Assembly (NCBI GenBank): GCA_903813345.2
Contig: CAIIXF020000002.1
Span: 24,814,455-24,878,454 of the forward strand
Source of the DNA: Owenia fusiformis
Lineage: Eukaryota; Annelida; Polychaeta; Sabellida; Oweniidae
Direction of reading: 5' to 3'
DNA: 64,000 bases
The position numbers and the translations under genes were made by a program. The stretch's first letter is position 1. Each line of letters starts with the position of its first letter. The notes beneath the pieces were generated by a model. The model was not told the origin of the DNA. It made no database searches and worked only from the letters and a program-made list of their open reading frames with translations. Shown here one piece after another: positions 5,930 to 50,089 of the stretch.

Positions 5930-6973
5930 ATTACAATCACCTTGTGATGTTCTGATCCAATTTCCAGGACATTGGCAGACAATATAAACTAGAAATTAGA
6001 ATATCAATTGAATATTTGAAACACTTTATTTTAACAATTAAAAGTAAATAACATGATATAGTTCGTCATTAATACCATTTTTAATCGTAAGTTAGCAGCC
6101 TTCTAATCAAATTATATACACAATCGTAATTCAATACACCAATGAAACTTAAAGAGAATAAATTAATGGACCTATTTTCTCAAAAGAGAATAAATTATCT
6201 GACCTAATTTCCAACAACATTGTGGCGCGAAATGCAAATGTGATATCACACGGATATGCGTGAGATAAACGATATCACACGCATATGAGTTTGATAAACG
6301 ATTTTCTGGAAAATATCACACGGATTTCAATAATATCAGAAATATCAACAGCTGTTATTGTACAGATAACACATTAATCGTGGGATAAACATGTTTATTC
6401 CATAGTTAGCATGATATTCATAGGATAACATGTGAAAATAAAAACGGTATTTTTGTAATCAGTGGTAAAATATGATATTTTTGACAAATTTTCACTTAAC
6501 CATAACATACGTTTTTTTAGCCATGACATACGACGTCGTATGCGATGGTTTATGGATTTTTGCTAACGCATTGCCAATTAAAGTCCATAACCGGTTCTGA
6601 TCTTGACGTCATGTTTTTTCCGGGAAATCTTATTTTGGCACTGAAAGACAATCAGATGAAGATGTGAGTCTGTTGGTATACTGTTTCTGCCAACCAATTA
6701 TAGTGTATTTATTGCATCAATATTCTTAACATTAATATCTTCGGTTTTTACCCCACGGAGTAAGTTAAACCGAACATAGACAAAACCAGTTACAACAAAT
6801 GGTACCTACTATCCCACATATAATTGACTGCCTTACACAACAAATATGTAAGATGCTTCAAAACTGTATTCGACCCGATCAAATATAAATTTGATAAGTA
6901 TTTTAAATATGTGTGATGCCAAGTACCATTCGCATTGGGTAAACATATTCATTTGTGGTAAACATATTCATTT
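5930..6973. other. Gene-free stretch with ATATCACACGG repeats
   Basis: Around 6238-6440 the motif GATATCACACG(G/C) with GATAAACG recurs three or four times and ends near TTTATTCCATAGTTAGCATG. The same vocabulary appears in the intron-10 satellite at 29081-29790, suggesting relatedness. No gene is visible. Confidence 0.45.
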
Positions 6974-7403
6974 GTGGGGTAAGTCACGTGACTTACCGAA
7001 TGATTTTATATAAACCAACGTTCACTGTTTTGATGTGGGGTAAGTCACGTGACTTCGGCCACGTGACTTGCGCCATCTATATATTCAAAGAACTCTGGTG
7101 TGATTCGTGAACACGTATCTTCCATTAAGAAAGGATCGCTTGAAGCCCCATGCCTGTTGCAATGGTCTAATAACTTCTCAAATTCCCCTCTGAATTGTGA
7201 ATATGAATCGTGTTCAAATTCTTTTTCCTCGCTTATTTCATCCATTTTGAAATAATTTCTACGTCACTGGTCACGTGATTTACCGAATGGTTTTATGCTA
7301 CATGCACATGCAGCATGTGTCATTTATGTGGGGTAAGTCACGTGACTTACCGCACATGATTTTATGCGAAAGTAATGTCATTAATTATGTGAGGTAAGTC
7401 ACT
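6974..7403. repeat. ~60-bp repeats carrying GTCACGTGAC palindromes
   Basis: The 20-bp palindrome GGTAAGTCACGTGACTTACC is perfect at 6978-6997 and 7332-7351, partial at 7038-7057 and 7269-7284, and half present at 7392. Unit starts near 6974, 7034, 7266, 7327 and 7387 show a ~60-bp step, interrupted by a block holding a minus-strand ORF. The core GTCACGTGAC is an ideal E-box for bHLH-zip factors of the USF/MITF/TFEB type. Whether it works as a regulatory site is inference. Confidence 0.75.
7045..7245 (-). CDS. Small acidic ORF, unknown function
   Basis: A 66-codon frame begins MDEISEEKEFEHDSY on the minus strand and is rich in Glu/Asp and aromatic residues, with composition unlike the surrounding AT-rich noise. 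It sits exactly between two blocks of the GTCACGTGAC repeats, and its stop lies inside the repeat. There is no signal peptide, membrane segment or recognised domain. It may be a short peptide gene, one exon of a larger gene, or chance. I found no clear splice site, so the level of support is low to moderate. Confidence 0.35.
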   Translation of the reverse strand: MDEISEEKEFEHDSYSQFRGEFEKLLDHCNRHGASSDPFLMEDTCSRITPEFFEYIDGASHVAEVT

Positions 7404-8991
7404 ATATGTCCGTGCTATTTTGTACACTATGATTGTTCGGTAAAAGAACATTGTTTGGTTCTAAAGTGTATTTGTATTTGATGCTTGTTCTAAACATATG
7501 TGTCAACCGTCTTTGTTCGTGTGTGTACATGGACTTAAATATGTGATATTTTACCAAACACTGAATAACATAGACCGCATATACAAGTTCATTTACCGCA
7601 TATATAGGTACATAAATCAAATATAAATGTGTAAAAACAAACAAGTTTATTACGGGTTTCGAATTATTTTAATAGAGTGGAATATCGAATGGTTGTAATC
7701 AAATATAAAAGTGTGAAAATCGAATAAAGATGCAGAAAAATTCCATAACCAATACCCATTGGATCTATTTGTGTAAAGAAAAATAAATGGAAATTACCGA
7801 ATTTGCACTTTAATTTTGCACTTACCTGAAACTCCCACAATGATCATGTGATGAGAACGATATCTTGATAATGAATGTGATTAGGCCTAATATTTTTGTT
7901 TTATGAGTCCAAAGTTTACTCTTATTTTAACGTAGCAATATAATAGGCAGCTGCTGTATTGATTGTCTTTCGAAGAAAAACTAAACCTAACTAGAATTAA
8001 TCATTAACAACGATAATTTAGCCAGTGCAAGTGTGCGCATATACATTTTACTTACACACGTGTAATTTATCAAAAATCGATACCTATGGTGTATAACCAT
8101 GTATAACCATGTTAAATCAATTGACAAAAGAAAAATATAAATTGAAAAATACCAGAACTCGTATTCACCTTTTTCACAAAGTAAAAAAACACTTAATTTC
8201 CGGCGCGCTGATTGGTTATATGCAAATGAGTTAAATCTATGACGTCAATGACTGAAAGTTTTGAAGAATTAGTACAGCCAGCATAGAAATATTTCGAATC
8301 AACTGCAATAAAAAGGATTATACATGCCCAATGGACTAATTATTTTAATCATATATGAAATATGGACGGGCCACTTTCATTCCGAATCTTATTTAATTTG
8401 ATTTAATCAATTTTTGACAGAACTATTGTTTATTAAGACTTGATTCTCAGATCAGCCTCAAATATCTCGTGCGATTGTAAACAACAAATGTAAGTTGCCA
8501 TTTCCGGATCGCATGGCGTTCACTTGCAAGTCGTATTTAAGTTTGATAACAATATTAGTTTGCAGTAAGTCTGATAACAATATTAGTTCCGGAAAGCAGA
8601 ACAAATCGGAACAATAAGTTAAATTGCACCATTGCTTGATTTCATTGTAATCACAAGACGTACATTTATCACATGCTCTGTAAAATTCCAGTAATCTGAT
8701 TGGTTATTTACCGTGTGAGTTTTCCCGTCTCACACGGCCGTCTCACACGTTACTAGAGGCAACCAGTGATAATCAATAGCAACGATGTGACGTCACTGAT
8801 TATATCACTTCTAGCTAAGGAAAACAATATGACGTCATACTATTTCACAAACAAGTACGAATACAACGGTATGACGTCATATTGTTTCAAAGCGAAATCA
8901 AAAATTATAATAGTTACCAGAAGTACTGAACACAATCATAACTGACCAAATCAAAATGCTTCAAAATTCCTAGACATGTGATAAAATCGTC
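7404..8991. other. Gene-free stretch
   Basis: The stretch is AT-rich and holds only short frames, including an unsupported 80-codon minus-strand frame at 7402-7644. A small GTCTCACACG repeat lies near 8725-8750, followed by several TGACGTCA-like sites (8790-8880). No gene is supported. Confidence 0.4.
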
Positions 8992-10823: not shown

Positions 10824-11205
10824 GTAAAATAATTTTTTCATTCTCAATAACTTTAGATATCTTGATGTTTGTAAGCTTCATACATAGACATTATATATAT
10901 GAATCATTTGAAAATAAATAATGCCAATCACTCCTACAGAATTTGAATTATAGTACAAAGTGTGTACCCTAGGGGGCAAATTCGTGACCCATTTTGTTAC
11001 TATTTAGAGCCTCACTTTTCAATTAGACACTGGAAGACATTGGAAAAATTCATGTGAAGTGCCCAGTAGCATGCCTATGAGCCCTGGAAGGTTCAAACTA
11101 ATTGAATCAGAAGAAGCCAAGAAAAAATTGTTGATTTTTTGAAAATTTTGACATTTTCGAGATGGGTGATTTTGTGTATGACTATAGCTGACGCTTATAG
11201 TTTCT

Positions 11206-12410
11206 AGATCCATCCCTCTTTGATGTTAAATATGGTTTTAAAGTGTAGAACTAAGATGTAAAAAATAATTAAGATGGGTTTTAAGGAAGTTTAAAGTTTT
11301 AAATAAGTCCAAAATTTGAAGAATTGTACAATATCAGGTCTGAATTTACGAATTTCAGGTATGACCTTGAATGACCCTTATGTTTTTTAAATCTGTCCCT
11401 CTTTGTTGATATTTATGGTTTTTTAGTAACAAACTAAGCTGTAAAATATAATTTAGATGGATTTTAAGAAGGTTTAATGATTTTAACAAGTCAAAATTTA
11501 AAGAATTGTACTATATCAGGTCTGAATTTATGAATTTCAGGTTAGACCTAGGGTAAGCCTTATATTTTTTACATCAGTCCCTCTTTGATTATATGTATTG
11601 TTTTGTAGTGTGGAACTAAGACGTAAAAACAATTAAGATGGATTTTAAGAAGGTTTTAGGATTTTCACAAGTTCAAAATTTGAAAAATTGTACAATATTA
11701 GGTCTGCAATTAACACATTTCAAGTATAACCTTGGTTGGTTCTCATGTTTTTTACACCTATCCCTTTTTCATGATATATTTGGTTTAGTAGTGTTGAAAT
11801 AATATGTATAACATAATCTGGATGGGTTTTAAAAAAACTAAATGTTTTAAACAAGTTCAAAATCTTGGCGAATTGTACAATATCAGATCTGAAATTAACA
11901 GATTTCAAGTATAACCTTTGTTGGCCCTTATGTTTTAAACATCCCTTTTTGATGATATATATGGTTTAGCAGTGTGGATCTAAAAGGTAAAACATAATTA
12001 AAATGGGTTTTAAGGAGGTTTAAGGTTTTAAACAAGTTCAAAACTTGACAAATTGTACAATTAAACCTGAAATAAACAAATTTCAGGTATGGCGTTAGAT
12101 GAGCCTTATGCTTTTTACATATATCTCTCTATGATAACATATATGGTTTTGCAGTATGGAACTAAAGTGTAAATCATAATTTAGATGGGTTTTAAGGAAA
12201 TTTTAGGTTCTAAAGAGGTTCAAAACTTGACAAATTGTACAATATCGTATCAGGTCTGAAATTATCAAATTTCAGGTATAGATTTGAATAATCCTCATTC
12301 TCTTGACATTCTAAACCTCTTTGATGATTTACATGGTTCTGTAGTGTGGGACTAAAATGTAAAACATAATTTAGGAATTTTGGGTTTTAAGGAAGTTTAA
12401 CCCTAATGTC
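11206..12410 (+). repeat. Left tandem array, ~183-bp monomer, 6-7 units
   Basis: Landmark strings (TCCCTCTTTGATGAT..., a TATGGTTT core, ...ACTAAGATGTAAAA, ...GATGGGTTTTAAGGAAGTTT, ...TTGTACAATATCAGGTCTGAA) recur from starts near 11206, 11389, 11571, 11753, 11936, 12121 and 12310. The spacing is 182-189 bp. Units are diverged by substitutions and small indels. Open frames inside are short and not conserved between units, so the array is non-coding. Confidence 0.85.
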
Positions 12411-12699
12411 TGCAGGGGAGGGGGGGGTCAAATTGACATACCCTTCTGTTTTTTAAATGGTACTTTTTGCAAGTTTTTCTTGTGCCATCATTATTATTTT
12501 TAGCTTGAGCCACAGATAAATGACACATTTTGGTGTAAAGATCAAGGTAATTTGGGGTAGAGGTGCAAAGTTATGATAGTCCGAAGTTGATCCCAATAAA
12601 GATGAAATTTATGAAATATTGATGGTTACCCTGTTCTTAAAACTATAAAAAAATGCAAAATGATGATAATTTCTAGATAATCATTTAGCAATAAGTAAT

Positions 12700-15300
12700 A
12701 AATATAAACCTCCTTAAAACCCCAAATTCCTAAATTTTGTTTTACATTTTAGTTCCACACTACAAAACCATGTAAATCATCAAAGAGGTTAAGAATTTCA
12801 GACCTAATATTGTACAATTTGTTTTGTTTTGAACTTCTTGAAAACCTTAAAGAGAGAATCAGATTCAGCAAGCAGCCAAACAAAAAATTGTTTAAATTTT
12901 TGAATATTTCTGGCTTGTGTCATTCCTTTTCATGTCTATTTGCTAAAAATCCCCAAAGTACACACTTTAGTGTAGGAAATCTAAAGATTTCTACAATAAT
13001 ATATTATTTTTCCATAAGAATGGAGAATGGTTACCATTCTTATTATTTTGGGAGTATTTAAACACCTTTCCCCCATTTTTGCACTTTGAATCCATTATAA
13101 CTTCATCAGTTTTTAACACATCATGAATCTTTTTAAAGATATTGTATTTTAGATTGTAAGGAATAGATTGGTAGGTGAATTGTACATGTTGCTTGTAATT
13201 TTATCACCCCTATAGATCTGATTCTGCCTTTTAACTTCCTTAAAACCGATCGATCTAAATTATGCTTTACATCTTAGTTCCATACTACTAAACCATATAT
13301 ATCATCATAGAGAGATATATACCTGAAATTCGTTAATGTCAGATATGATATTGTACAATTTGTCAAGTTTTGAACAGCTTTAAAACCTTAAACTTTCTCA
13401 AAACCCATCTAAATTATGTTTTCATTCTTAGTTCCACACTACTATGTATTACCAACCATATATTATATAATCATTGAGAGATAGATGTAAAGAACAAATA
13501 AGGGCCATCCACAGTTATACCTAAAATTAATAAATTCCAGACCTGTTATTGTACAATTCTTCATATTTTAACTTGTTTAAAACCTGTCTAACTTATGTTT
13601 GATATCTTAGTTCAACACTACTAAACCATATATGCCATCAAAAAGGGATAGGTGTAAAAAAACATAAGGTTCGTCCAAGGTAATACCAAAAATTCATTAA
13701 TATCAGCTCTGATATTGTACAATTCGTAAAAATTTGAACTTGTTGAAATCCTTAAACTTCTTTAAAATCCATCTCAATTATGTTTTACATATTAGCTCCA
13801 CACTACTATACAATATATACATATATCATCAAAAAGGGATAGATGTTAAAAATATAAGGGCCAAGCAAGATTATACTTTAAATTCGTTAATTTCTGATAT
13901 TGTACAATACACCAAGATTTTGAACTTGTTTAAAATGTTAAGCTTCTTTAAAACCTATCTAAATTATGTTTTATATATTTCCACACTACTAAACCAAATA
14001 TATCATGAAAAGGGGATAGGTTTAAAAAACATATGGGCCAACCAAGGTTATACTTGAAATCTGTTAATTGCAGACTTGATATTGTACAATTCTTCAAATT
14101 GTTTAAATCCTTAAACCTTCTTAAAATGCATCTAAATTATTTTTACATCATAGTCCCACACTACAAAACCATACATATCATCAAAGAGGGACAGATGTAG
14201 AGAATATAAGGCTCATCCAAGGTCATACCTAAAATTTGCAAATTCAGACCTGATATTGTACAATTCTTCATAACTTGTTGGAATCCTAAAACCTTTTCAA
14301 AATTCATCTAAATTATATTTTACATATTAGTTCCATACCATAAAACCAGGAATATCATCAAATGGGGATATAGATGTAAAATATAGATGTAAAAAAACAA
14401 AAGGGTCGTCCACGGTCATAGGTGAAATTCAAAATTACAGATCTGATATTATACAATTCTTCAAATTTTGGACTCATTAAAATCCTTAAACACTCTTCAA
14501 AACCATCTTAATCATTTTTGCATCTTAAATCCACGCTACAAAACAATACATATCATCAAAGAGTGACAGATGTAAAAATATAAGGCCCATCCAAGGTCTT
14601 ACCTGAAATTCGTAAATTCAGACCTGATATTGTACAATATTTCAAATTTTGAACTCATTAACATCCTTAAACCTTCTTAAAATTCATCTACATTATATTT
14701 TACATTTTAGTTCCACACTATAAAACCATGAATATAATCAAAGAGGAAAGGATGTAAAAAACTTAAGGCTCGTCCAAGGTCATACCGGAAATTCATGAAT
14801 TCAGACCTGATATTGTACAATTCTTGGACTCATTTAAAATCCTTAAACCTTCAAATCCATCTAAATTACTTTTACTCATTAGTTTCACACTACAAAACCA
14901 TACATATCATCAAAGAGGGACAGATGTAAAAATATAAGGCTCATCCAAGGTCTTACCTGAAATTCATAAATTCAGACCTTATATTGTACAATTCTTCAAA
15001 TTTTGGATTTGTTAATATCCTTAAACCACCTTAAAAACCATCTAAATTATTTTGTACATCTTAGTTCCATACTACAAAACCATAAATATCATCAAAAGGG
15101 GACAGATGTAAAAAATCTAAGGCTCATCCAAGGTCTTACCTAAAATTCGTAATTTCAGACCTGATATTATACAATTCTTTGAATTTTGAACTTGTTTAAA
15201 ACTTTTAACTTCCTTAAAACCCATTTTAATTATTTTTTACATCTTAGTTCCATACTTCAAAACCATATTTATTATCAAAGAGGGATAGATCTAGAAACCA
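12700..15300 (-). repeat. Right tandem array in inverse orientation, ~12 units
   Basis: This is the same ~183-bp monomer, reverse-complemented (TTGTACAATTCTTC, CTTAAAACCCATCTAAATTA, CTTAGTTCCACACTAC, ATCATCAAAGAGGGACAGAT). Copies are recognisable near 12779, 13300, 13467, 13637, 13826, 14004, 14179, 14355, 14554, 14737, 14910, 15091 and 15273. A non-repeat block of about 360 bp (roughly 12840-13205) interrupts it. The right array has about twice as many units as the left. A 107-codon open frame at 13734-14057 is repeat-derived. Confidence 0.85.
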
Positions 15301-28000: not shown

Positions 28001-31000
28001 CGGTGTAGGTTGGGGTGCTGTTGGCACGATGGCCAGCTACAACACGTTTAACAACAACTGTCACAGGTGATTTCGTTTGATTCCAGTTGGCAGACATTAT
28101 TCAATAGAATTACATACTCCTATCAGTCGCCATTCCACACAAATACGTTCAAAAAGCAAATCGTTCTGAGGTCTTGCCAATATGATACAGCCAAATATTT
28201 TAATTAATACAGATAATCTCAAAATGTCAATTTTCGTTACAGAGACTCCATTTTAATTCCAATCATGAATGCTGGTACGAGTCTATTCGCTGGTCTTGTG
28301 ATCTTCTCCATTGTTGGATTCATGGCTCACGAAACTGGCGAGAGTATTGAGAACGTCGTTACTCAAGGTAGTAAAGGAGTACCAATTAACCAGCATTTTC
28401 ATGTCGCACATAAAGTAGTGTAAGACAAGGCATTCACATGACAAATTATCACCACCCCTGAACGTCCTTGAAAATAAACGAAAGTTCAAATCCCAAATCT
28501 AAAGTCAGACTTGAACTCCTGAGAACTTGTAAATGATAAAAGAATTAGTCAATTTGAAACAAGTTGCTCACTAGCGTCGGCAATAGCCAACCAAGATTGA
28601 GTGTTCAGCAATGCTGTGAATCAAACTTATCAATCATGACTTTCATTACCTTGTTAAGGTATAGACGTAACCTGATATTTTAATGGTAGTTGCTAAGACG
28701 TTTGCAATTCTTGCTTAAATCCAATCCTTTTCAATTAAGGTCCTGGGCTTGCTTTTGTTGTATACCCAGAGGCTGTGACCAAACTCCCGGCTGCTCCTGT
28801 GTGGTCCGTGTTGTTTTTTACGATGGTTCTGACAGTCGGCATTGGTAGTCAGGTAAACGTTTTCTTGATCAAACAGTCATATTTATACATTTTGGTTTTT
28901 CAAATAACTTTGTTAAAATAGATGGAATCCTATTGGTTATTCTGATATGAGTAAAAATAATGGTTGAATAATTTATAACAATCAAAATTGATAAAAATCG
29001 AATTCGTTCATCATACGGATGTGCGACTGATGAACAATATCAGTCGCATATAGGTTTGCAAAACTCTACATACCACATTGGTTATCAATATCATGGTCAG
29101 TATCACATGGCTCTCTACAATATCACTCTCGTCATTAATATCATCGTGAGTATCACACGGTTCTGTACAATATCACACTCTTTATTAATATCATTGTGAG
29201 TATCACATGGTTCTCTGCACTATCACATTTTTTATTAATAGCATCGTGAGTATCACATGGTTCTCTACAATTATACACTCTTTAGTAAAAGCATCGTGAG
29301 TATCACACGGTTCTCTACAATATCACACTCGTCATTTATATCATCGTCAGTATCACATGGTTCTCTACAATATCACACTCTTTATTAATAGCATCATGAG
29401 TATCACATGGTTCTCTACAATATCACACTCTTTATCAATAGCATCGTGAGTATCATATGGTTCTCTACAATATCGCACTCGTCATTAATATCATCGTACG
29501 TATCACATTGTTCTCTACACTATCACACTCTTTATTAATAGCATCATGAGTATCACATGGTTCTCTACAATATCACACTCTTTATCAATAGCATCGTGAG
29601 TATCATATGGTTCTCTACAATATCACACTCGTCATTAATATCATCGTCAGCATCACATGGTTCTCTACACTATCACACTCTTTATTAATAGCATCATGAG
29701 TATCACATGGTTCTCTACAATATCACACTCTTTATCAATAGCATCGTGAGTATCATATGGTTCTCTACAATGTCACACTCGTCATTAATTGGGTGTTATA
29801 TGCATAAAAGACAATAATCATGGGGTAAATGTATAACACTGATATAGTTATATATTGATTGTAGTTTACCATGGTTCAAAGCATAGCTGTCTCTGTTGTT
29901 GACGAGTTCAACTTGTCTAACAGGAAAGTACTAGTAACAGCAATTCTATGTATTGTAGAATTTGTCCTGGGTTTACCAATGATAATGCAAGTAAGCAGTA
30001 CTTATACTTATTGCTTTTCAATTTTAGTTTAAAACTTTGTGGCAAGAATCATATATCATCCCAATGTCTGTGACTCACCCGTTTATGTTGAAATAATAAT
30101 GGCATAATGTTACATCATTGCAAAACTCAAAATTTAACTGACATGCAACAATAACATGTTTTGATATTCTGAACAAACGGACGCAATTAATGCAAGTGCT
30201 ATCAAGTCAATCAACAACTTTTGTATTGCCTTAACACGTCTAATTCTTTTCAATGTTTCTTTAAGATTTTGAACAGATTGTTTTAAATTCGATCGCTTGT
30301 TTTAAGGGCGGCATGTACGTGTTACAAGTGATGGACTGGTACGCCGTTACATTTGTCATAATGATTGTAGCATTTACAGAGTGCGTAGCAGTTGCTTGGA
30401 TATATGGTAAAAACAAATTATTTTATGTTGCAGTGACCATCGCTCTTCTGAAATTGATTCATTCAATGCGCCGGCGGTTAATCATTGTGCTATCCGTTAT
30501 AAAATTTACCATGCCAATTCTCTCCTTAGATCCAGGGCATCCAACATTTAAGAGTTGGTATTTGGTCACGTGGTATCCATGTGATGGATCCATATAAGGC
30601 CTATAGGATCATATAGGAATCCGATTTACTGTTTGTCCACCATTTGAATGTCATATGATAGATCAAAACATGGCCTGTAGGACCATATAGGGAATGCTTA
30701 AGGGAAGCCACCAATGCAAATTAATACCAAATAAGTATTGGAGCTACTCACTATTTCTGAGCGGTTCATCCAATACTTTTGACTTTTCTTTTTATCCTTC
30801 ACATATGTATGATATTTACATGTAATAACGAGCACTCATGTCAGAATACCTCTAATATATGCATACTTTTAATGTCCTTAATGTCTTCAGGCATGAACCA
30901 GTTTTCCAAAGATATTGAGTTGATGATTGGTTTTAAACCATGCCTTTGGTGGAAGATGTGTTGGCGATTCCTTACACCAGGTCTCGTATTGGTAAGTTGC

Positions 31001-34568: not shown

Positions 34569-35662
34569 TAAACAGGATCTTAAGAGGTTCTGGACAAATC
34601 ATTTGATTCTGGACTTGTCATATTTTTTTTTCAACGAAATCACATCCAAGGGTTGAATTTTTATTAGCTATTTAGAGAGTGAGTCCTGCCTAGTATTAAT
34701 TTCAATAAAAAAGTTAAAATAGAACCCTATTTGAGAGTCAATCTAATACTTACATTACATTGATAAATTAAGGCAAATCCTGAAATATTTTTAAAGTGCG
34801 TTTTTTAATGAAATATTATCCAGCAAGTATTTAAATGAAACGGTCTTATTTAAATACAAATCATAACATGATATTTTTCATGAAACATTTTTCAATGAAA
34901 TTCAATTGAAGGGTCAAGATAAAACGAGCTAATTTAGGTGAAAACCCTTACATGATGATGTGTTTTCATAACTTCTTTCATAAAATTCCATCAAGGGGTG
35001 AAGATAAAATGATCGAATTTAAGTGATTTAAGGATCACGAGAATATGTTTTCTTTGATATTTTCTATGAAATCCCATCCAATGGTCAAGGTAAAATTTTG
35101 ATTTTGATTTTGATTTGGTCACGTGTTCGAAAGATCCATATAAGGCCCATAGAATCAAATAGGAACGTCATTTTGAATGTCACGTGATAGATCCATATAA
35201 GGCTTTTAGAACCATTTATGGAAAGATGAGGGAAGCCCCTGACACCTGTTTCACGATTTTTATGCACTTCATTATTGTACCGAAGTTTGCCGATTCGATT
35301 CGTCGTATGTCGGAATCCTGGTGACAATTTTATACTCCATTGGAGTATTTTTGACCTACTTCTTATGACGGAAATTCCCGAACCTTGTTCGGATTAATCC
35401 GGATTTTCTGACCTACTTTATCTACCGAGATTTCACGAGTTAACATTCGTCTCATTCCGGAATCCTGGTGACAATTTTATACTCCATTGGAGTATTTTTG
35501 ATCTACTTTTTTCTGGATTTTGCCCTACTTATTATATCTTGACAACAAGCAAATCAAAAAGTTCGACATGAACGGGTCTCGATCAACTAACCTTGACTAT
35601 GGAAGCCAGGCACGCTAACCATGAGGCCAACGAGCTACCGATATGAAAGAACAAAAGTATTA
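34569..35662 (+). repeat. Inner inverted arm, left
   Basis: Starts AAACAGGATCTTAAGAGG and ends at ...GAACAAAAGTATTA. It is nearly identical to the reverse complement of 41676-42768, including an 80-codon frame present in both arms that is non-coding in appearance. The high identity means recent insertion or ongoing gene conversion between the arms. Confidence 0.92.
35573..35641 (-). other. tRNA-like Pol III promoter in left inner arm
   Basis: This is the inverted copy of the tRNA-like segment at 41699-41765. See that entry. Confidence 0.5.
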
Positions 35663-37351: not shown

Positions 37352-38439
37352 CGAGGGGTGATCAATAAGTAATGGACGCTTTTTTACACAGATACTTTTT
37401 ATAGACCAATCCCTTTGATTTTCCTACCAGTGATACGTCATTCAATTATCTATCAATTCTGAAAATTTGAAGACAAAATATATAATATATGTTGATATAT
37501 CCTTATTTCCGTGAAGGAGGTACAGGTACCCCGGGACCGACATTTACGTCATATATTCAGTTTTTAGCCAGTTTGGCAAATTTCAGTTAGATTTGAACTT
37601 TTTATATGCAACAAGTGTTGTGTTGTTTGACATTTTTTGCTGACTGGTAACACATAAACAGAAAGTATTGTGATGTCAGAGTGTTGTATGGAAGGGGTTT
37701 GCAGGTCAATTTGAGAAAGCATTGTGGAAGAAAGGGGTGGTGAGAGAAGGGAACACCCTACTCCATATGGACAATGCACCTGCCCACAGATCTCAAAATG
37801 TTCAGAAAACAATATCCCTGGACCTCAAAATTGAGCTCTTGGCCAATGCACCATATTGTGCAGATCTGCTCACATGTGACTTATTTATTTCTATACTACT
37901 TATTTCTATAGAGAAAGGATGCAGGTTTATTGCCATTGATGAAATAAAACAACTCGTGCAACTGCATCTTGCTACCATGTCAGAGAATGGATTCAGCCTT
38001 GTCTCACAATCTTGCGAGTTAAGAGGATGAGTAATTGTGTACATGTAGCATTTGATTGAACCTATGTAGAGGGACCTGTGGAATGAATGTGGCATGAATA
38101 CCACATAGTGATGATAAAATATTCAAAATCAACTATGACATAACAAAATGGGGTAATTCATGACCATAATGGTTTGTTTTGTTCAGCCTGCATTCAACTG
38201 CATTGCATGTTAAACAAGTTAAAATAACTTTAGAATGTTTGACGTAAATGTCGGTCCCGGGGTACCTACACATCCTTCACGGAAATAAAGATATATCAAA
38301 ATATATTACATGTTTTGTTTTCAAATCTTCAGAGTTGATAGATAATTGAATGACGTATCACTGGTAAGAAAATCAAAGGGATTGGTCTATAAAAAGCATC
38401 TGTGTAAAAAAGCGTCCATTACTTATTGATCACCCCTCG
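37352..38439 (+). mobile_element. Mariner-type element remnant with ~200-bp inverted ends
   Basis: The ends CGAGGGGTGATCAATAAGTA and its inverse are flanked by TA (37350-37351, 38440-38441). Inverted pairing runs about 200 bp, to GACATTTACGTCA on each side, including GGTACCCCGGGACCGACA. The internal transposase is truncated. Length is 1088 bp. It is inserted within the SGNH/Gag element. Confidence 0.9.
37722..38030 (+). pseudogene. Mariner transposase catalytic-domain remnant
   Basis: The 102-codon frame contains LLHMDNAPAHRSQNVQ, the classic mariner motif around the second catalytic Asp, then YCADLLTCDLFI in place of 'SPDLAPCDFFLF', which holds the third Asp. The DNA-binding domain and first catalytic Asp are missing, so the protein is inactive. 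It lies centrally between the long inverted ends, as expected for the element's own gene. Confidence 0.85.
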
Positions 38440-38748: not shown

Positions 38749-39612
38749 TCAATGTTTACACTTAAAGCAATAGTGGTGGAATTTGCATTCAGATTTTTTG
38801 AAGCAAGTTTGGCCTAATTGGAATTTGTAACAGAATCCTTTGGGGATGTTTGGTTTTGACTTGCTATTGCTTGGGTATTGAGAGTTAATGTGCTTGTTAT
38901 TTTGCTGTTGCTTTCCCTCGAGGGAAGTAAAAATGAATAACGTGGGATGGGGCTGGTCCCAGGGTAATGATATATTATTGGCCCTTGCCCGTCGAAAATT
39001 TTCGTCGTAGTAGTTCCAGTCCAAATGATTTTCCGCTAATTTCCTTACATTCTGGCCATAGTGCATTAACGGAATTGCATCCGTGCCATATTTTGTGCAA
39101 TGTATGGTGGTGAAAATATGGAAAGCGGAAATCCATTCTTCAATGGAAACTAATTTAAAATTACCTTGGGCCTTGGTTATTTTAAGATTACCTGATTTGG
39201 ATTGTTTCAAATCGAATTCTGAGTCTTTGACTCGTGAATGTTTAGGGAGAAGTGACCCGAACTCTACGTACTCGTTATTCCAGATTTTTTGCTTAATAGC
39301 TGTTGGCACATGCATGTCGATAGGTATTTGGAAAGAAAATGCCTTAGAAGGAGCTTCGGGCTCATTGAGGTTTGTTTCCGTACCTAATCTTGGGAATGAG
39401 ACCTCGCCGTCTGAATCCCCAGAGTCCTCGCGATCGCTAGTAGAGTTGTCTCCTGTATTTGCTGATGTTGCAGGTTGCTGGGATAGACTTTCTACCACCC
39501 GTTTCGTGATTTCCACCACCAACTCCTCATTCAACTTCTGCTTCTTTGTTGAAGGTTTTCTTCCGGGTGCCCTTGAAGGCGATCCCCTGGGTCTTAGTTG
39601 TCTCTTAGGCAT
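38749..39612 (-). CDS. Gag-like nucleic-acid-binding protein with CCCH zinc finger (retroelement ORF)
   Basis: The 287-residue frame is read from the second ATG (MPKRQLRPRG...), because that gives a basic, proline-rich start. An in-frame ATG 18 codons upstream is possible, but a TTTTATTTGCAG acceptor-like site precedes ATCATG, suggesting a spliced leader exon. Order: basic N-terminus with KPSTKKQK; Ser/Asp-rich acidic linker; a central region with WISAFHIFTTIHCTKYG, typical of Gag-like ORFs paired with tyrosine-recombinase elements; a Q/N-rich stretch; and a C-terminal CYKFQLGQTC...C...HH finger (C-x8-C-x5-C-x3-H). Its role would be binding element RNA. The frame is intact. Confidence 0.65.
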   Translation of the reverse strand: MPKRQLRPRGSPSRAPGRKPSTKKQKLNEELVVEITKRVVESLSQQPATSANTGDNSTSDREDSGDSDGEVSFPRLGTETNLNEPEAPSKAFSFQIPIDMHVPTAIKQKIWNNEYVEFGSLLPKHSRVKDSEFDLKQSKSGNLKITKAQGNFKLVSIEEWISAFHIFTTIHCTKYGTDAIPLMHYGQNVRKLAENHLDWNYYDENFRRARANNISLPWDQPHPTLFIFTSLEGKQQQNNKHINSQYPSNSKSKPNIPKGFCYKFQLGQTCFKKSECKFHHYCFKCKH

Positions 39613-39762
39613 GATCTGCAAATAAAACGAGAGACGCGGTGGGAAAATAAAGAAAGTTAAGGACATATGATTAGATATTCGTTGATTTATTTATACGATT
39701 ACGTAACAGCGATATTTTACAATTTTAATAAAGCAAGACAAACAAAGACAAACAAATTACAA

Positions 39763-40320
39763 GCCATATTTTGTCTCTACAGATAATAATTTCAATCCGT
39801 GAGATGAAGTATGAGGATAATAATTTCAACCCTCGAATCAAACGATTTAAATGCCATTTTTTGTCTCAACAGATACGAATTTCAATTCGTGAGATGAAGT
39901 ATGAGGATAATAATTTCAATCCTCGATCAAACAATTTAAATGCCATTTTTTGTCTCAACAGATACTAATTTCAATCAGTGAGATGTAGTATGAGGATAAT
40001 AATTTCAATCCTCGAACAAACAAATAAACGCCATTTTGTCTCGACAGATACTAATTTCAATCTGTGAGATAAAGTATGAGGATAATAATTTCAATCCTCG
40101 AACAAACATATAAACGCCATTTTTGTCTCGACAGATACTAATTTCAATCCGTGAGATAAAGTATGAGGATAATGATTTCAACCCTCAAACAAATAGAACG
40201 TAATACTATTTAAGAGGGCACTAAAGTCTTTAATTAAGGATACTTATTTCAATCCTTGAGACCGTTAAAAAGGTAATAGTTGTTGTCCGTAGTTTGGATA
40301 TGATTTCAATCCAAGGGACA
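39763..40320. repeat. Tandem array of covarying hairpins with constant ATTTCA loop
   Basis: Five ~86-90-bp units (starts near 39763, 39853, 39942, 40030, 40116) each hold two hairpins, followed by two lone ones near 40236-40260 and 40294-40316. The loop core is ATTTCA throughout, mostly AATTTCA. Stems differ but stay paired: ACAGAT/ATCTGT, GAGGAT/ATCCTC, AAGGAT/ATCCTT, TTGGAT/ATCCAA. Outer TCTC/GAGA pairing extends some. It lies between the SGNH and Gag-like ORFs of the element. It looks like CRISPR superficially, but it is not: there is no unique spacer series and the host is an animal. Confidence 0.85.
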
Positions 40321-40623
40321 AGTGAGCCTTGTGGTTAAATCTCACAATCAAATGCTCAGAAGCTGATTCTGAGCGATGCACAAACAATGATATAATTCAA
40401 ATGGCTACTGTATTAAGACAAGGAATGGTTACCCAGCTTTCGGCAGCTCGAGAAATATATATTGAGTGCTGCATTACCTTTGCCCTGTTTGCGTGATGAT
40501 ATATATAAAGATATATTTCTAATACAATAATTGTTTTTCAATTAAATCTTTATACCACTACCCCATGCTACGAGTAGAAAAATACAATAATGGGTCTTAC
40601 CAGCAATGCTTATGTTTTGTATA
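40321..40623. other. Short gap between hairpin array and SGNH ORF
   Basis: Nothing recognisable beyond AT-rich sequence. Confidence 0.4.
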
Positions 40624-41196
40624 TTAATTAAGTTGGCTTTCACCGAAGATGCATGCTTGCTTGTAGCTTTGATAGAGTTTATAATTTCCGCGATCATTGT
40701 AATGGACACCGTCTTCAATGTAGAGGTTAAATTGGCTATTCCTAATACCTCTGTGGTGCCACAGCTTTGCGAATGGAATGTGCTCTAATAATGCTGTCAG
40801 AATACGATTGCATAGCATGACATTTTCATTGTATTTTAAAGGAGCTGATTTTCTTTGTATAAGTTCAGATACTAAAATGTATTCGACGTGATATTCTTGG
40901 TGTAATTTTATGACTAGATTTTCTATATCGGAGGCTACTGTTTCGGGTCTTTTTCCGTTTGAGATATCATTTCCTCCAATTTGTAAGATGACTATGTTTG
41001 GCGGATTTTTTAATTTATTTTCCAATGTTTCATTCAATATTGTCCCTACTTTTCTACCGCCCAAACCGTCATATCTAATATGAATGCGTTCTAGCCCAAG
41101 ATTCCATTTAACGCGTTTGTCTTCAGTTGTGCGAACATAATTCTTAAAGCGCCTAACAAAGGAATGTCCAATTAGCATTGCTGATAATCCATCCAT
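40624..41196 (-). CDS. SGNH/GDSL-type hydrolase (retroelement-associated)
   Basis: The 190-residue frame has the SGNH blocks in order. Block I is MLIGHSFVRRF with nucleophile Ser12. A DGLGGRKV glycine block (43-50) could supply the oxyanion hole. Block III is LQIGGNDIS with Asn76. Block V is DGVHYNDRG with Asp162 and His165. All catalytic positions are present and the frame is open, so it could be active as an esterase or lipase-like enzyme. SGNH ORFs accompany Ngaro-type tyrosine-recombinase retrotransposons and the ORF1 of some CR1-like LINEs; here the partner is the Gag-like ORF on the same strand. The host gene alternative is less likely because of the inverted arms around it. Confidence 0.75.
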   Translation of the reverse strand: MDGLSAMLIGHSFVRRFKNYVRTTEDKRVKWNLGLERIHIRYDGLGGRKVGTILNETLENKLKNPPNIVILQIGGNDISNGKRPETVASDIENLVIKLHQEYHVEYILVSELIQRKSAPLKYNENVMLCNRILTALLEHIPFAKLWHHRGIRNSQFNLYIEDGVHYNDRGNYKLYQSYKQACIFGESQLN

Positions 41197-41675
41197 GTTA
41201 CAAAATGTATAAAGGAACAGATACTCACAGGGTTTAATAGATATCGCTTTAGATGGTGAAGAGATTTATATCCTCCTTCCGAGTCCTGTCCACTATGGAA
41301 TTTGGTAAATGATCGAATTCAATCCACAAACTGTGTATTTATTAACTTATAAGTTCGTAAAGTAAAAATATGTTATAAATTGTATATAAATAGTGTTCTT
41401 TCTTATGTTATATAATATTTTCTTAATATAACAATGCTGAATAGCTTGTAAAGTTGAAACAATAATTTTTTAACAAATCAATGCTTATTTATGTTGTCTG
41501 TTTCGAAACATGAAACTGAATGAAGGATGCTGTCTAGCTAGGAAGTAGTAGATAGACCCAAGATGTAACTCGAGACACACGTGTATAACTGAAAGTGAAA
41601 GCCAGTACATGATTGGATATCCGGCCAGTCGGTATAAATCCATTTAAGGTCCACTTGCAGATTCCTTAAATTACT
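41197..41675. other. Upstream region of SGNH ORF
   Basis: This should hold the promoter for the minus-strand ORFs. I see TATATA-like strings near 41385 but nothing decisive. Confidence 0.35.
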
Positions 41676-42768
41676 TAATACTTTTGTTCTTTCATATCGG
41701 TAGCTCGTTGGCCTCATGGTTAGCGTGCCTGGCTTCCATAGTCAAGGTTAGTTGATCGAGACCCGTTCATGTCGAACTTTTTGATTTGCTTGTTGTCAAG
41801 ATATAATAAGTAGGGCAAAAATCCAGAAAAAGTAGATCAAAAATACTCCAATGGAGTATAAAATTGTCACCAGGATTCCGGAATGAGACGAATGTTAACT
41901 CGTGAAATCTCGATAGATAAAGTAGGTCAGAAAATCCGGATTAATCCGAACAAGGTTCGGGAATTTCCGTCATAAGAAGTAGGTCAAAAATACTCCAATG
42001 GAGTATAAAATTGTCACCAGGATTCCGAAATACGACGAATCGAATCGGCAAACTTCGGTACAATAATGAAGTGCATAAAAATCGTGAAACAGGTGTCAGG
42101 GGCTTCCCTCATCTTTCCATAAATGGTTCTAAAAGCCTTATATGGATCTATCACGTGACATTCAAAATGACGTTCCTATATGATTCTATGGGCCTTATAT
42201 GGATCTTTCGAACACGTGACCAAATCAAAATCAAAATCAAAATTTTACCTTGACCATTGGATGGGATTTCATAGAAAATATCAAATAAAACATATTCTCG
42301 TGATCCTTAAATCACTTAAATTCGATCATTTTATCTTCACCCCTTGATGGAATTTTATGAAAGAAGTTATGAAAACACATCATCATGTAAGGGTTTTCAC
42401 CTAAATTAGCTCGTTTTATCTTGACCCTTCAATTGAATTTCATTGAAAAATGTTTCATGAAAAATATCATGTTATGATTTGTATTTAAATAAGACCGTTT
42501 CATTTAAATACTTGCTGGATAATATTTCATTAAAAAACGCACTTTAAAAATATTTCAGGATTTGCCTTAATTTATCAATGTAATGTAAGTATTAGATTGA
42601 CTCTCAAATAGGGTTCTATTTTAACTTTTTTATTGAAATTAATACTAGGCAGGACTCACTCTCTAAATAGCTAATAAAAATTCAACCCTTGGATGTGATT
42701 TCGTTGAAAAAAAAATATGACAAGTCCAGAATCAAATGATTTGTCCAGAACCTCTTAAGATCCTGTTT
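41676..42768 (-). repeat. Inner inverted arm, right
   Basis: Nearly identical inverse of 34569-35662; ends ...CCTCTTAAGATCCTGTTT. It contains the tRNA-like segment at its inner edge. Confidence 0.92.
41699..41765 (+). other. tRNA-like Pol III promoter at inner edge of arm
   Basis: TTGGCCTCATGGTTAGCGTG resembles an A box, and GTTGATCGAGACCC, about 35 bp further, resembles a B box. The cloverleaf stems do not close, so it is tRNA-derived rather than a tRNA. The same segment sits inverted at 35573-35641, so each arm begins with it. Confidence 0.5.
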
Positions 42769-46540: not shown

Positions 46541-47236
46541 ACATGGGCATCGTGGCTCTGTTAAAATAGATCGCATTAGATATGTTAATAGAAGTAATAG
46601 AATGAAGTTTATATTGAAGTAAATCGCAATAGTACACTTATAAATAATTTAAGGTTGTAGATAATAATTAGGGCTGCCGATGGTTAACCGGTTAATGAAC
46701 TGCAGATAGTAGCTTACTCGAGTAAGAAAGGATGGGTATCGATATGGTGAACATTTTGAACACACGTTTCTCTTAAACCAGTCATCAAACAATTCTGAAA
46801 ATTTCACGCATTGTCAATTTGATGGTCATCTTTTGATTGCAGTTTTTTGTTCAAAACTGATTTCAACTTGCTCGAAATTGACTAAACCATTTTTTAAATC
46901 ATGTACAAGTTCTCAGGAGTTTTCATCTGACCTCAAATTTCAGATTTGACCTTCAATTTTGAACAAAATATTCACTCGACCGGGCGCCGGAGCAAATATT
47001 ACCTAAAAGTCCTGACTTTTTAATAAAGGAAAAAACCATCTGTTCCTTTTATTTCAGTCAAAAAATGAAAAAATACCATTGTAAAATGTACTTTTAGAAA
47101 TCATTTGCTTTATTTCAAATAGACAATTTGTAAATTGTACAACTACATTTACTTTATATTCGTACATCAGTATTAATATTTAAGCTTTTGCTGCCAATAT
47201 AAGCTAAACAATCTATCAAAAATTTAATTTGTCGAG
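46541..47236. other. Gene-free stretch with half hairpin copy
   Basis: Near 46968-47008 the string CACTCGACCGGGCGCCGGAG followed by CAAATATTACC is one arm of the hairpin family seen at 47911-48056. Nothing else is visible. Confidence 0.5.
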
Positions 47237-47880
47237 TATAGAAATTTCTATACGAGAAAAATGGCTGAATGTACAGACATTTCTATATCAGACTTAAAAT
47301 GTCCCTATAGAAATTTCTATAAGAAACAAGCTGCCCATTCGTATAGAAATTTCTATACTAGAGAAACGGATGCATGTGAAAAAAATATATTATGTCCGAT
47401 AACTGTGCATGTTCGTATAGAAATTTCTATACGAGGCAAGTACTGTATAAATATTTCTACAGCAAACCCGATAACTACCCGCATAGAAATTTCTATACAG
47501 ACAGTATAGACATTTCTATAGCTTATCCGATAACTGTCCGTATAGAAATTTCTATACGAGGCAAGTCAACAATGTATATAGAGATATCTATATTGGGGAT
47601 ATGTCTGCCTGTATAGAAATTTCTATAGCATACTCGATAACTGTCCGTATAGAAATTTCTATACGAGGCAGGTTTACGTATGTAGAGATACATGTATCTA
47701 TATTGGGGATATGTCTGCCTGTATAGAAATTTCTATAGGATACTTGATAACTGTCCGTATAGAAATTTCTATATGAAGCAAGGTTACATAGAAATACAAA
47801 TTACAAATTACATACAAACAAATTACATAGAAATATATTTACAAGAGAAATGGCTACCTGTATATGGATTTCTATAGAAG
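47237..47880. repeat. Array of TATAGAAATTTCTATA palindromes phased at ~36 bp
   Basis: The 16-bp palindrome (exact or 1-2 changes) starts at 47237, 47306, 47342, 47416, 47482, 47505, 47541, 47577, 47612, 47648, 47722 and 47758. Degenerate forms lie between and after, to about 47880. Most steps are 35-37 bp or twice that. Sequences between sites are partly shared (CGAGGCAAG, GATAACTGTCCG, GGGGATATGTCTGCCT) and partly not. Open frames through the array simply read the repeats. It is not a CRISPR: the host is an animal, and the intervening sequence is itself repetitive. Confidence 0.9.
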
Positions 47881-47910: not shown

Positions 47911-48056
47911 TAATGCCTTGGTCACATTTGCTCCGAATTTTACTACGGCGCCCGGCCGATTGAGTATTATGTTCAAAATTAAATAGAATTGTAAACAAAA
48001 TACTCAATCGGCCGGGCGCCGACCGATGGTTTGGAGCAAATGTGACCACGGCATAA
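47911..48056. repeat. Hairpin element, GGTCACATTTGCTCC...GGAGCAAATGTGACC ends
   Basis: The arms hold GGTCACATTTGCTCC, CGGCGCCCGGCCGATTGAGT and the near-exact inverse, with a ~30-bp AT loop. It is the best copy of a family with further members at 34179-34321, 46968-47008 (half) and 56540-56650. Confidence 0.9.
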
Positions 48057-48187
48057 GAACAAAAATATCTATCCTTATAAGTATAAAAGAGCTCCAATGA
48101 CTTCTTAATTATAAACATGTACATTAGACAAAATGGCGGTCTGTGAAAATCTGTATGTTGTTACAAATCACAACCATAGTACTATAT

Positions 48188-48313
48188 ACAATTATTGACC
48201 TCTCCAGAGGTTTACTGTCAAAATTATATCCCGAGACTGTAAACCGAGACGTCTCGGTTTACAGTCTCGGGATATAATTTTGACAGTAAACCTCTGGAGA
48301 GGTCTATAATTGT
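48188..48313. repeat. 106-bp perfect palindrome without spacer (126 bp with one mismatch)
   Basis: 48198-48303 reads identically on both strands, centred on GAGAC/GTCTC between 48250 and 48251. Pairing resumes beyond one mismatch to 48188 and 48313. Uninterrupted palindromes of this size are unstable in most genomes, so this is probably recent, or may be an assembly artefact. Confidence 0.93.
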
Positions 48314-48317
48314 TTTG

Positions 48318-48608
48318 TTAGTCCGAAGAATATCTTAGATTTTTCTGACCCTTGAAGTTGACTTGAAGTTGGATCCAGACCCTCGAGACGTTCTTGTTGT
48401 ATTTCAGTATATCGGCAGTAAGTTCACTCAATGGAGTCAAATTACTCTCCTGGGCGAAGTCCACTAAAAGCTTTGTACAAAGTTTTAGATTTTTCTTCGT
48501 ATTTTGACTGTCTTTACTCTCTAAGAGACTTATAATATCCTCATCTACAACATTTTTGAAACGGCTAGTGCTAGCGGCGGCCATTTTATCGTCTGATAAT
48601 GACGTCAT
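48318..48608 (-). pseudogene. Crypton/DUF3504-like N-terminal fragment
   Basis: The 96-codon frame contains RFKNVVDEDIISLLESKDSQ, NTKKNLKLCTKLLVDF and a LTPLSELTADIL segment. This matches the N-terminal SAM-like part of Crypton-type tyrosine recombinases and of ZMYM/QRICH/KCTD1-related host proteins ('F..ls.e.i..ll..kds.nTkk..k....f..yl'). It then loses similarity and stops just outside the 106-bp palindrome. The catalytic core is absent. It is probably a broken Crypton copy, or one exon of a longer gene. Confidence 0.5.
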
Positions 48609-50089
48609 TTTAGTGGAATGCTGGGAATATTATTCACCGGCAATGCATTGCGCGGTGTACAGTCAAAATTATTCACCGCTCGTTGACCAATCAAAATCGA
48701 GTATTTCAACTGAGGTACTAACAATAATTATAGGTTGCCTCTTTCAGAAAAAGAGCAGAAATAGAAACAGGTTTTTACTTTTACAGAAGGACTGTCTTCA
48801 TAGAAATATCCACATGATACAAGAATGTGATCCGTAAAGAAATGCCTATATTGGTTGAAATACTTGTAGAAACCATTGATATTCTTCATAAGATTATCTT
48901 AAAACATTTTTCAATAATGACAATTACAATGGAAACAACGATGCATCTCGCATTCATGCTGCATTTACCTACTGTTACCATTCTTATAGCTTATAATTAA
49001 TTTCACTATATTATATCCAAAATGAACAATTAATGTCATGTTGATATTTTCAAGAAATAAAAATTGACAAGTTATTTTACACTTTATAACTACTACACTA
49101 GATTAACCAAGTCGTTTTTGCCTTAGATTGATCAATGTTCACAATGACCAAATCAGTTATAAATATAACTTCTAACAAATGCAGTATGCACAGAGTTACC
49201 TGATTTAAAATTGGTCATTTATATGATCCTACTATGCAAAATAGCAGCCTATCGTCACTTCCAATATCCTGTTAGAAAACTGGTATATTACAACGAGATA
49301 TGCGCATTATATCACAATGATGTGGAATGTTGCAATATTCTTGCACTGCTTTCAGAGAAATAGACTGATTGATATGCTCTCGAATATATGCTTTCAATAT
49401 TGCAAGATAGAGTACATAAATCAGATTTATGTATTGATATAGGAAAATGAAGTAAAAAATTAGATCAATATAAATCTGGAGATTGATAATAAAAAGTATC
49501 CAAATGTCCTTTGTTAGATCATATGGTATAAACTGTCCCCAGGGATGAAAATGAAAGCTGTCAGGTCTGCATCGATTCACTGAAAAATGAGGAAAAAGAA
49601 TAATTAGAACGAATAGCTTCAGCAAGTGCATGGGTGTGAGGGGCTCCCTTTGCAACTTGTTATAGTATATTGGGCAATGCAATTCTTCATCAATTTAAAA
49701 AACATTGGAGTGAATTCAATGATTCTGACCATTATTTTTATAATAACATGTCTGTAACAATTTAAATTGACAATACAGAATTAATATTATGAAATTAATG
49801 TTAGCTTTAAAGCTCTTGATAAGAAGTCTTCATAATCATGTTATCAAGTAATATGAAGTTCACCGATTTTCTGCCTCAACTTTGTCTTTTTTCTTTTCCC
49901 ATTCACATTTTCCTCAGAACAGGGCGGCCTTTTATTATCTTTTTTCTGAACTTCACCTAAAAAACATGCAATTTTTTTTATTGATTAAATGTTTATTTTG
50001 ACAACTCACACATTGTATCGAATATTTGTTTCTTTATGCACTGAATCCTCGACAAAGTTCGTTGAAATGCATTCATTTATTGACTGATG
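48609..50089. other. Mostly gene-free stretch
   Basis: Plus-strand frames here are short. On the minus strand a possible exon (49272-49579) is listed separately. Nothing else is recognised. Confidence 0.4.
49272..49579 (-). CDS. Possible exon of unknown multi-spanning protein
   Basis: A minus-strand frame follows a good acceptor (CCTCATTTTTCAG). It begins NRCRPDSFHFHPWG and contains a long hydrophobic, Tyr/Ile-rich stretch (DIWILFIINLQIYIDLIFYF and beyond) that could be two membrane segments, then an amphipathic tail. I found no clear donor or neighbouring exon, and AT-rich DNA favours such frames. It may be a chemoreceptor-like fragment or noise. Confidence 0.22.

What the first reader, a model, noticed from the sequence alone, without database searches (positions are those of the whole stretch)
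39763..40320. Tandem hairpin array with constant loop and covarying stems between SGNH and Gag-like ORFs
At least ten hairpins share an ATTTCA loop core (mostly AATTTCA), while the six-base stems change in paired fashion (ACAGAT/ATCTGT, GAGGAT/ATCCTC, AAGGAT/ATCCTT, TTGGAT/ATCCAA). Paired change with a fixed loop implies that the folded form, as RNA or single-stranded DNA, is selected. The array sits in the spacer upstream of the Gag-like ORF, where packaging, translation or recombinase-recognition signals would be expected. I know of no described array of this kind in tyrosine-recombinase elements.
Basis: partly seen in the sequence, partly recalled or inferred. Interest (0 to 1): 0.85.

Follow-up and report, generated by a model that had tools for sequence, protein, structure and literature searches.

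The report
RNA hairpin array in jumping gene
A mobile element of the Ngaro type carries, just in front of its capsid-like gene, twelve short hairpins that share one loop but have differently matched stems, probably a tag by which the element's full-length RNA is recognised and copied.

Summary
On the minus (sense) strand there are 12 hairpins: ten in five ~89-bp tandem units, plus two single ones. The loop core UGAAAU is invariant; the outer three stem pairs change in matched fashion (96.7% of cells paired, 0 of 500 shuffles reach this), but only four stem classes are independent. The element is a Ngaro-type tyrosine-recombinase retrotransposon with split direct repeats; the window copy breaks off in gag. 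All 8 listed copies with the gag start keep the array. It lies between SGNH and gag, perhaps in an optional intron: acceptor-like site within 15 nt of the gag ATG in 16 of 17 families. A related family (L034) has its own array on other stems. A multi-copy form of it with broken genes (3 of 3 long stretches) and mostly decayed splice sites keeps more hairpins, and its stems vary less than its linkers. That suggests a cis-acting role. Best reading: a Gag-recognised genome-selection (packaging) signal. RNA folding, splicing, Gag binding and packaging are inferred. Templated palindrome correction is a serious rival for the matched changes.

The parts
38756..41676 (-). copy of a Ngaro-type retrotransposon, 5' part only (A1, SGNH, array, gag cut off)
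   Evidence: 99.0% identical to L009 532-3448; copies end at 41676
41385..41676 (-). A1 split direct repeat
   Evidence: matches A1 and A2 of L009
41223..41231 (-). donor-like site in the leader, CCU/GUGAGU
   Evidence: p 0.10 in this family, so weak
40624..41196 (-). SGNH/GDSL hydrolase ORF
   Evidence: Pfam Lipase_GDSL_2
40595..40603 (-). donor-like site after the SGNH stop, CUG/GUAAGA
   Evidence: (p 0.009)
40294..40314 (-). hairpin h1, TTGGAT/ATCCAA
40236..40257 (-). hairpin h2, AAGGAT/ATCCTT
40165..40186 (-). hairpin h3 (class A)
40131..40152 (-). hairpin h4 (class B)
40078..40099 (-). hairpin h5 (class A)
40044..40065 (-). hairpin h6 (class B)
39992..40013 (-). hairpin h7 (class A)
39958..39979 (-). 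hairpin h8 (class B, one U-U)
39903..39924 (-). hairpin h9 (class A)
39869..39890 (-). hairpin h10 (class B, other register likely)
39813..39834 (-). hairpin h11 (class A)
39779..39800 (-). hairpin h12 (class B)
39616..39633 (-). acceptor-like site, pyrimidine-rich stretch ending TTTGCAG, 3 nt before the gag ATG
   Evidence: (p 0.003)
38749..39612 (-). Gag-like ORF from the ATG after the acceptor; cut off in this copy; CCCH finger
   Evidence: no Pfam family above cut-off

Best explanation
It is an array of cis-acting stem-loops in the full-length transcript of a Ngaro-type retrotransposon. Stems of different sequence present the same short unpaired motif, UGAAAU in this family. Proposed working: the element's own Gag, which carries a CCCH finger followed by a CCHC motif, binds the repeated loops together and so selects the full-length RNA for assembly and reverse transcription. 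The array sits between SGNH and gag, in a segment that is probably spliced out of a gag mRNA, so that only genomic RNA bears the tag. Shown here: the hairpins, the matched stems, their persistence in copies with the gag start, lower stem variability, a comparable array in a second family that persists in a form with broken genes, and acceptor-like sites before gag. Inferred: RNA as the folded form, splicing, Gag binding, packaging, and the carry-over from the second family to this one.
For: Matched stems round a fixed loop. Stems vary less than array linkers in this family (4 of 144 against 21 of 298 columns, p 0.049) and in the gene-broken form of the L034 family (4 of 168 against 46 of 599, p 0.007). 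That form has 25 listed places; in the 12 fetched it keeps 5-7, 5-7 and 2-4 hairpins of three kinds against 3, 3 and 1 in the coding form, while the donor is changed in 12 of 12 and the acceptor lost in 8 of the 11 where the site was found; in 3 of 3 long stretches gag changes frame at the same place and no ORF over 144 aa is left downstream. Gag ends in CX8CX5CX3H plus CCHC. Acceptor-like site before gag in 16 of 17 families. Precedents for separate RNA pools and export of unspliced RNA: PMC3735527 and PMC10309623 (abstracts).
Against: No binding, splicing or packaging data. 7 of 12 places with most of the 3' end, and a short C6 copy, have no listed array. Nearest relatives L015-L018 and L030 show no UGAAAU hairpins. 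Excess structure is not general: 7 of 18 spacers against 5 of 30 controls, p 0.085. In this family the spacer outside the array varies as little (17 of 437) as hairpin stems. In the gene-broken form loops vary like linkers (7 of 93, p 0.58), and only 2-4 of the 5-7 Q hairpins have all six pairs. The finger's likeness to solved RNA-binding fingers is not significant (E 2.1 and up).
Confidence: 0.4

Rival explanations
1. The hairpins are bound in the nucleus, by a host or element protein, to keep the transcript unspliced or to export it, in the way of RRE, CTE or the Cer1 CERV route.
For: Acceptor-like site before gag in 16 of 17 families and donor-like sites near the SGNH stop in 7 of 17; the array lies between them; Cer1 needs a special route for its unspliced RNA (PMC10309623 abstract).
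Against: In the L034 family the array is kept and larger where the donor and mostly the acceptor have decayed.
Confidence: 0.2
2. The matched arms arise by mutation, not selection: template switching or palindrome correction copies one arm onto the other, and tandem duplication spreads the result.
For: Only four stem classes are independent; the tandem part clearly spread by duplication; such correction is known in general (recalled).
Against: The loop core is invariant in all 12 while flanking arms differ; stems vary less than linkers in two families, although correction could add to that.
Confidence: 0.15
3. It is a cluster of duplex DNA sites for a host factor, such as an enhancer or insulator like that of gypsy; the + strand core is GATA plus ATTTCAATC.
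For: All 12 share the core; gypsy has a cluster of Su(Hw) sites before its gag (recalled; listing only).
Against: A duplex site does not explain why the bases on its two sides change as matched pairs.
Confidence: 0.12
4. The array helps to translate gag from a transcript whose first ORF is SGNH (internal entry or reinitiation).
For: It stands directly before gag.
Against: It is kept in a form whose gag is broken; an acceptor-like site next to the gag ATG offers a simpler route.
Confidence: 0.08

Closest known systems
Repeated packaging-signal stem-loops of single-stranded RNA viruses (MS2, STNV; PMC3662417, abstract and outline; hepatitis B core, listing)
   Same: Several stem-loops that share a loop motif on different stems, proposed to be read by the coat protein
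   Different: Those are spread over a viral genome and tested; here they are tandem, in one spacer of a retrotransposon, and binding is untested
Retroviral psi and export elements (recalled; review listings)
   Same: Structured RNA upstream of gag, between donor and acceptor sites, so absent from spliced RNA
   Different: Not a tandem array of one hairpin; here gag, not env, would be the gene behind the acceptor
BARE retrotransposon RNA pools (PMC3735527, abstract)
   Same: A spliced mRNA for Gag apart from the packaged RNA; a parasitic subfamily without Gag keeps the packageable RNA
   Different: LTR element of plants; no hairpin array is named in the abstract
Ngaro-like elements of Xenopus (PMC9210276, passages)
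   Same: SGNH ORF, gag-like ORF, RT/RH, YR, split direct repeats
   Different: ORFs overlap there; 'hairpin', 'tandem repeat' and 'intron' do not occur in the text
gypsy insulator (recalled; listing)
   Same: A repeated motif upstream of gag
   Different: Duplex DNA sites; here the flanks of the fixed core change as matched pairs

Membership tests
Ngaro-type tyrosine-recombinase retrotransposon | split direct repeats A1 ... B1 A2 B2 | tested here: met
   L009: A1 528-823, B1 6681-6929, A2 6925-7220, B2 7435-7683; the window copy has A1 only
Ngaro-type tyrosine-recombinase retrotransposon | reverse transcriptase with RNase H | tested here: met
   L009: RVT_1 72.4 bits; RNase H domain 24.7 against cut-off 24.8
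Ngaro-type tyrosine-recombinase retrotransposon | tyrosine recombinase | tested here: inconclusive
   L009: Phage_integrase E 6.8e-5 but 23.2 bits against cut-off 27.1
Ngaro-type tyrosine-recombinase retrotransposon | no methyltransferase domain (unlike DIRS) | tested here: met
   none among the Pfam matches of four L009 ORFs
coat-protein packaging-signal array | several stem-loops with a shared loop motif on different stems | tested here: met
   12 hairpins, invariant UGAAAU, four stem classes
coat-protein packaging-signal array | bound by the element's coat protein, raising packaging | not testable with these tools
   no binding data; only the CCCH/CCHC layout
retroviral psi or export element | present in unspliced, absent from spliced RNA | tested here: inconclusive
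   splice-like sites on both sides, no transcripts, no spliced copy seen
gypsy-type insulator | cluster of duplex sites for a host zinc-finger protein | not testable with these tools
   no binding data; matched arms are not expected for such sites
known RNA family (Rfam 15) | match at the curated score | tested here: not met
   39600-41000: only two matches, both below the gathering score

The most novel reading that the evidence does not exclude
Tyrosine-recombinase retrotransposons mark their genomic RNA with fast-changing, family-specific arrays of stem-loops (one loop word per family: UGAAAU here, AUUUAU in the L034 family), read by a CCCH-finger Gag; the array is the cis tag by which gene-broken copies are mobilised by intact relatives.
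Probability: 0.25. Interest if true: 0.8.

Novelty: new variant of a known kind. Interest (0 to 1): 0.6.

Why it matters
In the papers listed or searched here I saw no account of how tyrosine-recombinase retrotransposons choose their genomic RNA. A compact array of repeated stem-loops, kept in a multi-copy form whose genes are broken, gives a concrete cis element to test, and families whose loop words differ give a natural comparison.

Tried and rejected
Rfam: nothing at the curated score. Word GATTGAAATNNTNATC over the genome: 77 places, 31 of them in copies of this element by my count of the listing; the other 46 are scattered, and the reversed control gives 28, so no other array of this exact word is seen. 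A spliced copy: the L033 relative at C4:25883027 begins 7 nt from the acceptor and has unrelated DNA upstream, so it is no evidence. Nearest relatives by SGNH or gag (L015-L018, L030): no UGAAAU hairpins; partial or decayed. L016 has palindromes with AUUUAU far upstream that I could not tie to the element. The rule 'all SGNH-bearing Ngaro elements have hairpin arrays' is not supported: 7 of 18 spacers against 5 of 30 control stretches (p 0.085); 11 spacers show no excess at my thresholds (L019, L022, L023, L025-L027, L031, L035, L038-L040); 2 of 14 gag-side stretches (L024, L031) show as many hairpins as in no shuffle (fewer shuffles were used than in 28). Covariation in the L033 array: not significant (164 of 500).

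Rows dropped or doubtful: from the 17-family splice-site count I left out L036 and L041 (gag ATG uncertain), L020 and L021 (near-copies of L019), L031 (no gag match), L037 (no SGNH match), L015-L018 and L030 (partial) and L042-L048 (no SGNH found). L024's ATG was set by likeness to L026 and reads only 50 aa. Site weights are recalled, the null comes from ATGs and stop triplets of the window, and SGNH starts of L009 and L038 were off, so those p-values are rough. In the sister-form alignment L057 fell out (anchor not found) and L056 kept a tail. The first P counts included a look-alike; one search gives strict counts.

Full report
What is there. The stretch 39763-40320 holds 12 hairpins on the minus strand, the sense strand of the element. 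Each is a six-base arm, a loop of 9-10 bases that begins UGAAAU, and a six-base arm. Ten lie in five tandem units (spacing 86-90), two per unit (A: GAGGAU or GAGGGU with AUCCUC; B: four variants of the 5' arm with AUCUGU). Two singletons with other arms (UUGGAU/AUCCAA, AAGGAU/AUCCUU) lie upstream in the sense direction.

Is it more than chance? Over the 12 hairpins (10 distinct rows) 96.7% of pair cells are standard pairs, against 81.2% when the 3' letters are dealt out anew (0 of 500), and the covariation score is 0.578 against 0.247 (0 of 500); slid registers pair in at most 54.2% of cells. The number of pairs changed on both sides, 3, is not unusual by itself (162 of 500). Tandem copies are not independent: four stem classes are. 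A simple composition model puts all 12 outer pairs of these classes at about 1e-5. The whole spacer (L009) has 10 perfect hairpins against 3.7 in shuffles (1 of 200).

Which strand? On the sense strand the departures are 5 G-U, 1 A-C and 1 U-U; read on the other strand, 90.0% of cells pair. The tendency (5:1, p 0.11; 9:3 over the 16 distinct hairpins of the copies, p 0.07) favours the sense strand but proves nothing, and local folding energy does not separate the strands (z -2.6 sense, -3.4 antisense).

The element. Copies elsewhere in the unnamed 498-Mb genome show split direct repeats A1 ... B1 A2 B2 and, in order, SGNH, gag, RT/RNase H and a tyrosine-recombinase ORF (L009). That is the Ngaro plan; the recombinase match lies below Pfam's cut-off. 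The window copy runs from 41676 to 38756 and stops inside gag. The array query finds nine places, seven over its full length at 98-100%, the window's own included. All 8 copies listed with the start of gag keep the array (122 of 126 candidates scored). Against this, of 12 places with most of the 3' end, 7 have no listed array within 10 kb; one of these (C12:29156604-29160072) has a 5' repeat too, and a short copy at C6:39884528-39885446 has both kinds of repeat, a gag piece and no array. I did not read these; they may be truncated or internally deleted. Inside the L009 element, hairpins of this kind were found only in the SGNH-gag spacer.

The spacer looks like an optional intron. In 16 of 17 families that I could annotate, an acceptor-like site ends within 15 nt of the chosen gag ATG (13 of 17 with p<0.05, Fisher p 2e-12); a donor-like site at the SGNH stop reaches p<0.05 in 7 of 17 (Fisher p 1e-6), one in the leader before SGNH in 5 of 17, this family not among them (p 0.10; Fisher p 0.004). 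The site weights are recalled and the null comes from the window, so these values are rough. In this family: CUG/GUAAGA at 40600 and UUUGCAG at 39616, 3 nt before the ATG. No transcript was available, and no spliced copy was seen.

Selection in this family. Over 8 copies, stem columns vary less than array linkers (4 of 144 against 21 of 298, p 0.049). SGNH (64 of 573) and leader (53 of 483) vary more, but the spacer outside the array varies little too (17 of 437), so the contrast is modest. Among the five window units 2 of 22 columns vary in A, 4 of 22 in B, 14 of 34 in the B-A linker.

A second family. The L034 spacer has its own array, with three hairpin kinds on different stems whose loops share UUAU within AUUUAU. 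A related form is listed at 25 further places. In the three long stretches that I read, gag changes frame at the same place, SGNH matches in different frames, and no sense ORF over 144 aa is left downstream, against 559 in L009 (the recombinase end of one stretch is cut off). So this form seems to have multiplied without its own proteins. Yet each of the 12 fetched copies holds 5-7, 5-7 and 2-4 hairpins of the three kinds, against 3, 3 and 1 in the coding form, while the donor is changed in 12 of 12 and the acceptor is lost in 8 of the 11 where the site was found. In 11 aligned copies stems vary less than linkers (4 of 168 against 46 of 599 columns, p 0.007); loops do not (7 of 93, p 0.58). 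In the three long stretches hairpin columns vary in 5 of 257, broken coding columns in 102 of 2549 (p 0.06) and spacer linkers in 22 of 571. The sixth pair of the second kind is broken in about half of its hairpins.

How general? Not a rule. Excess structure is seen in 7 of 18 spacers against 5 of 30 control stretches (p 0.085); repeated 9-mers cover more than 5% in 8 of 17 spacers against 10 of 60 control stretches (p 0.014). L033 has a 55-bp unit in 13.3 copies that folds strongly (z -10.3) but without significant covariation.

Mechanism. A fixed loop on matched but changing stems is what one expects when a protein reads the loop and the stem only presents it. In the L034 family the array is kept where gag is broken and splice sites decay, so there it seems to work in cis on what is mobilised, not for making Gag or for splicing. 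Gag is the obvious reader: it ends in CX8CX5CX3H followed by a CCHC motif in this family, L027 and L032, with variants in L019, L022 and L029; other families were cut before that point. The closest solved chains are CCCH fingers, without significance (E 2.1-2.9). I therefore favour a genome-selection (packaging) signal at 0.4, ahead of export (0.2), mutational palindrome correction (0.15), duplex DNA sites (0.12) and translation (0.08).

What is in print. Searches listed no paper that I could recognise, from titles and abstract starts, as describing such arrays in tyrosine-recombinase elements. In five papers on such elements searched for passages (PMC9210276, PMC3783388, PMC3266345, PMC4157794, PMC8547959) 'hairpin' and 'tandem repeat' (or 'tandem') do not occur. 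The SGNH ORF and split repeats are known from Xenopus (PMC9210276). The founding Ngaro papers were not read. BARE (PMC3735527), Cer1 (PMC10309623) and the packaging-signal review (PMC3662417) were seen as abstracts and outlines.

Noticed in passing
window 47228-47786: Another palindrome array, GTATAGAAATTTCTATAC and variants, with fixed arms rather than matched changing ones; strongest fold among 30 control stretches (z -9.4).
   Followed up: partly
window 34570-35662 and 41676-42768: Inverted repeats of 1094 bp, 99.5% alike, of a common repeat; their inner border meets the 5' end of the Ngaro copy exactly at 41676.
   Followed up: no
window 48170-48310 and 47915-48055: Two fold-back elements with long near-perfect inverted arms, read by eye.
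   Followed up: no
window 48318-48629, minus strand: ORF with a weak match to a phage-integrase SAM-like domain (E 0.058, below cut-off); perhaps the start of a Crypton-like gene (recalled).
   Followed up: no
window 37674-38030, plus strand: ORF that looks like a piece of mariner transposase (recalled motif), beside a repeat common in the genome.
   Followed up: no
window 29064-29789 and 11189-15297: Tandem arrays of 50-bp and about 180-bp units.
   Followed up: no
L035 1533-2037 and L023 1049-2349: Spacers of other Ngaro families with repeated short words (ATGGCTTTG 9 times, AGTCGCAAT 8 times) but without excess hairpins.
   Followed up: partly
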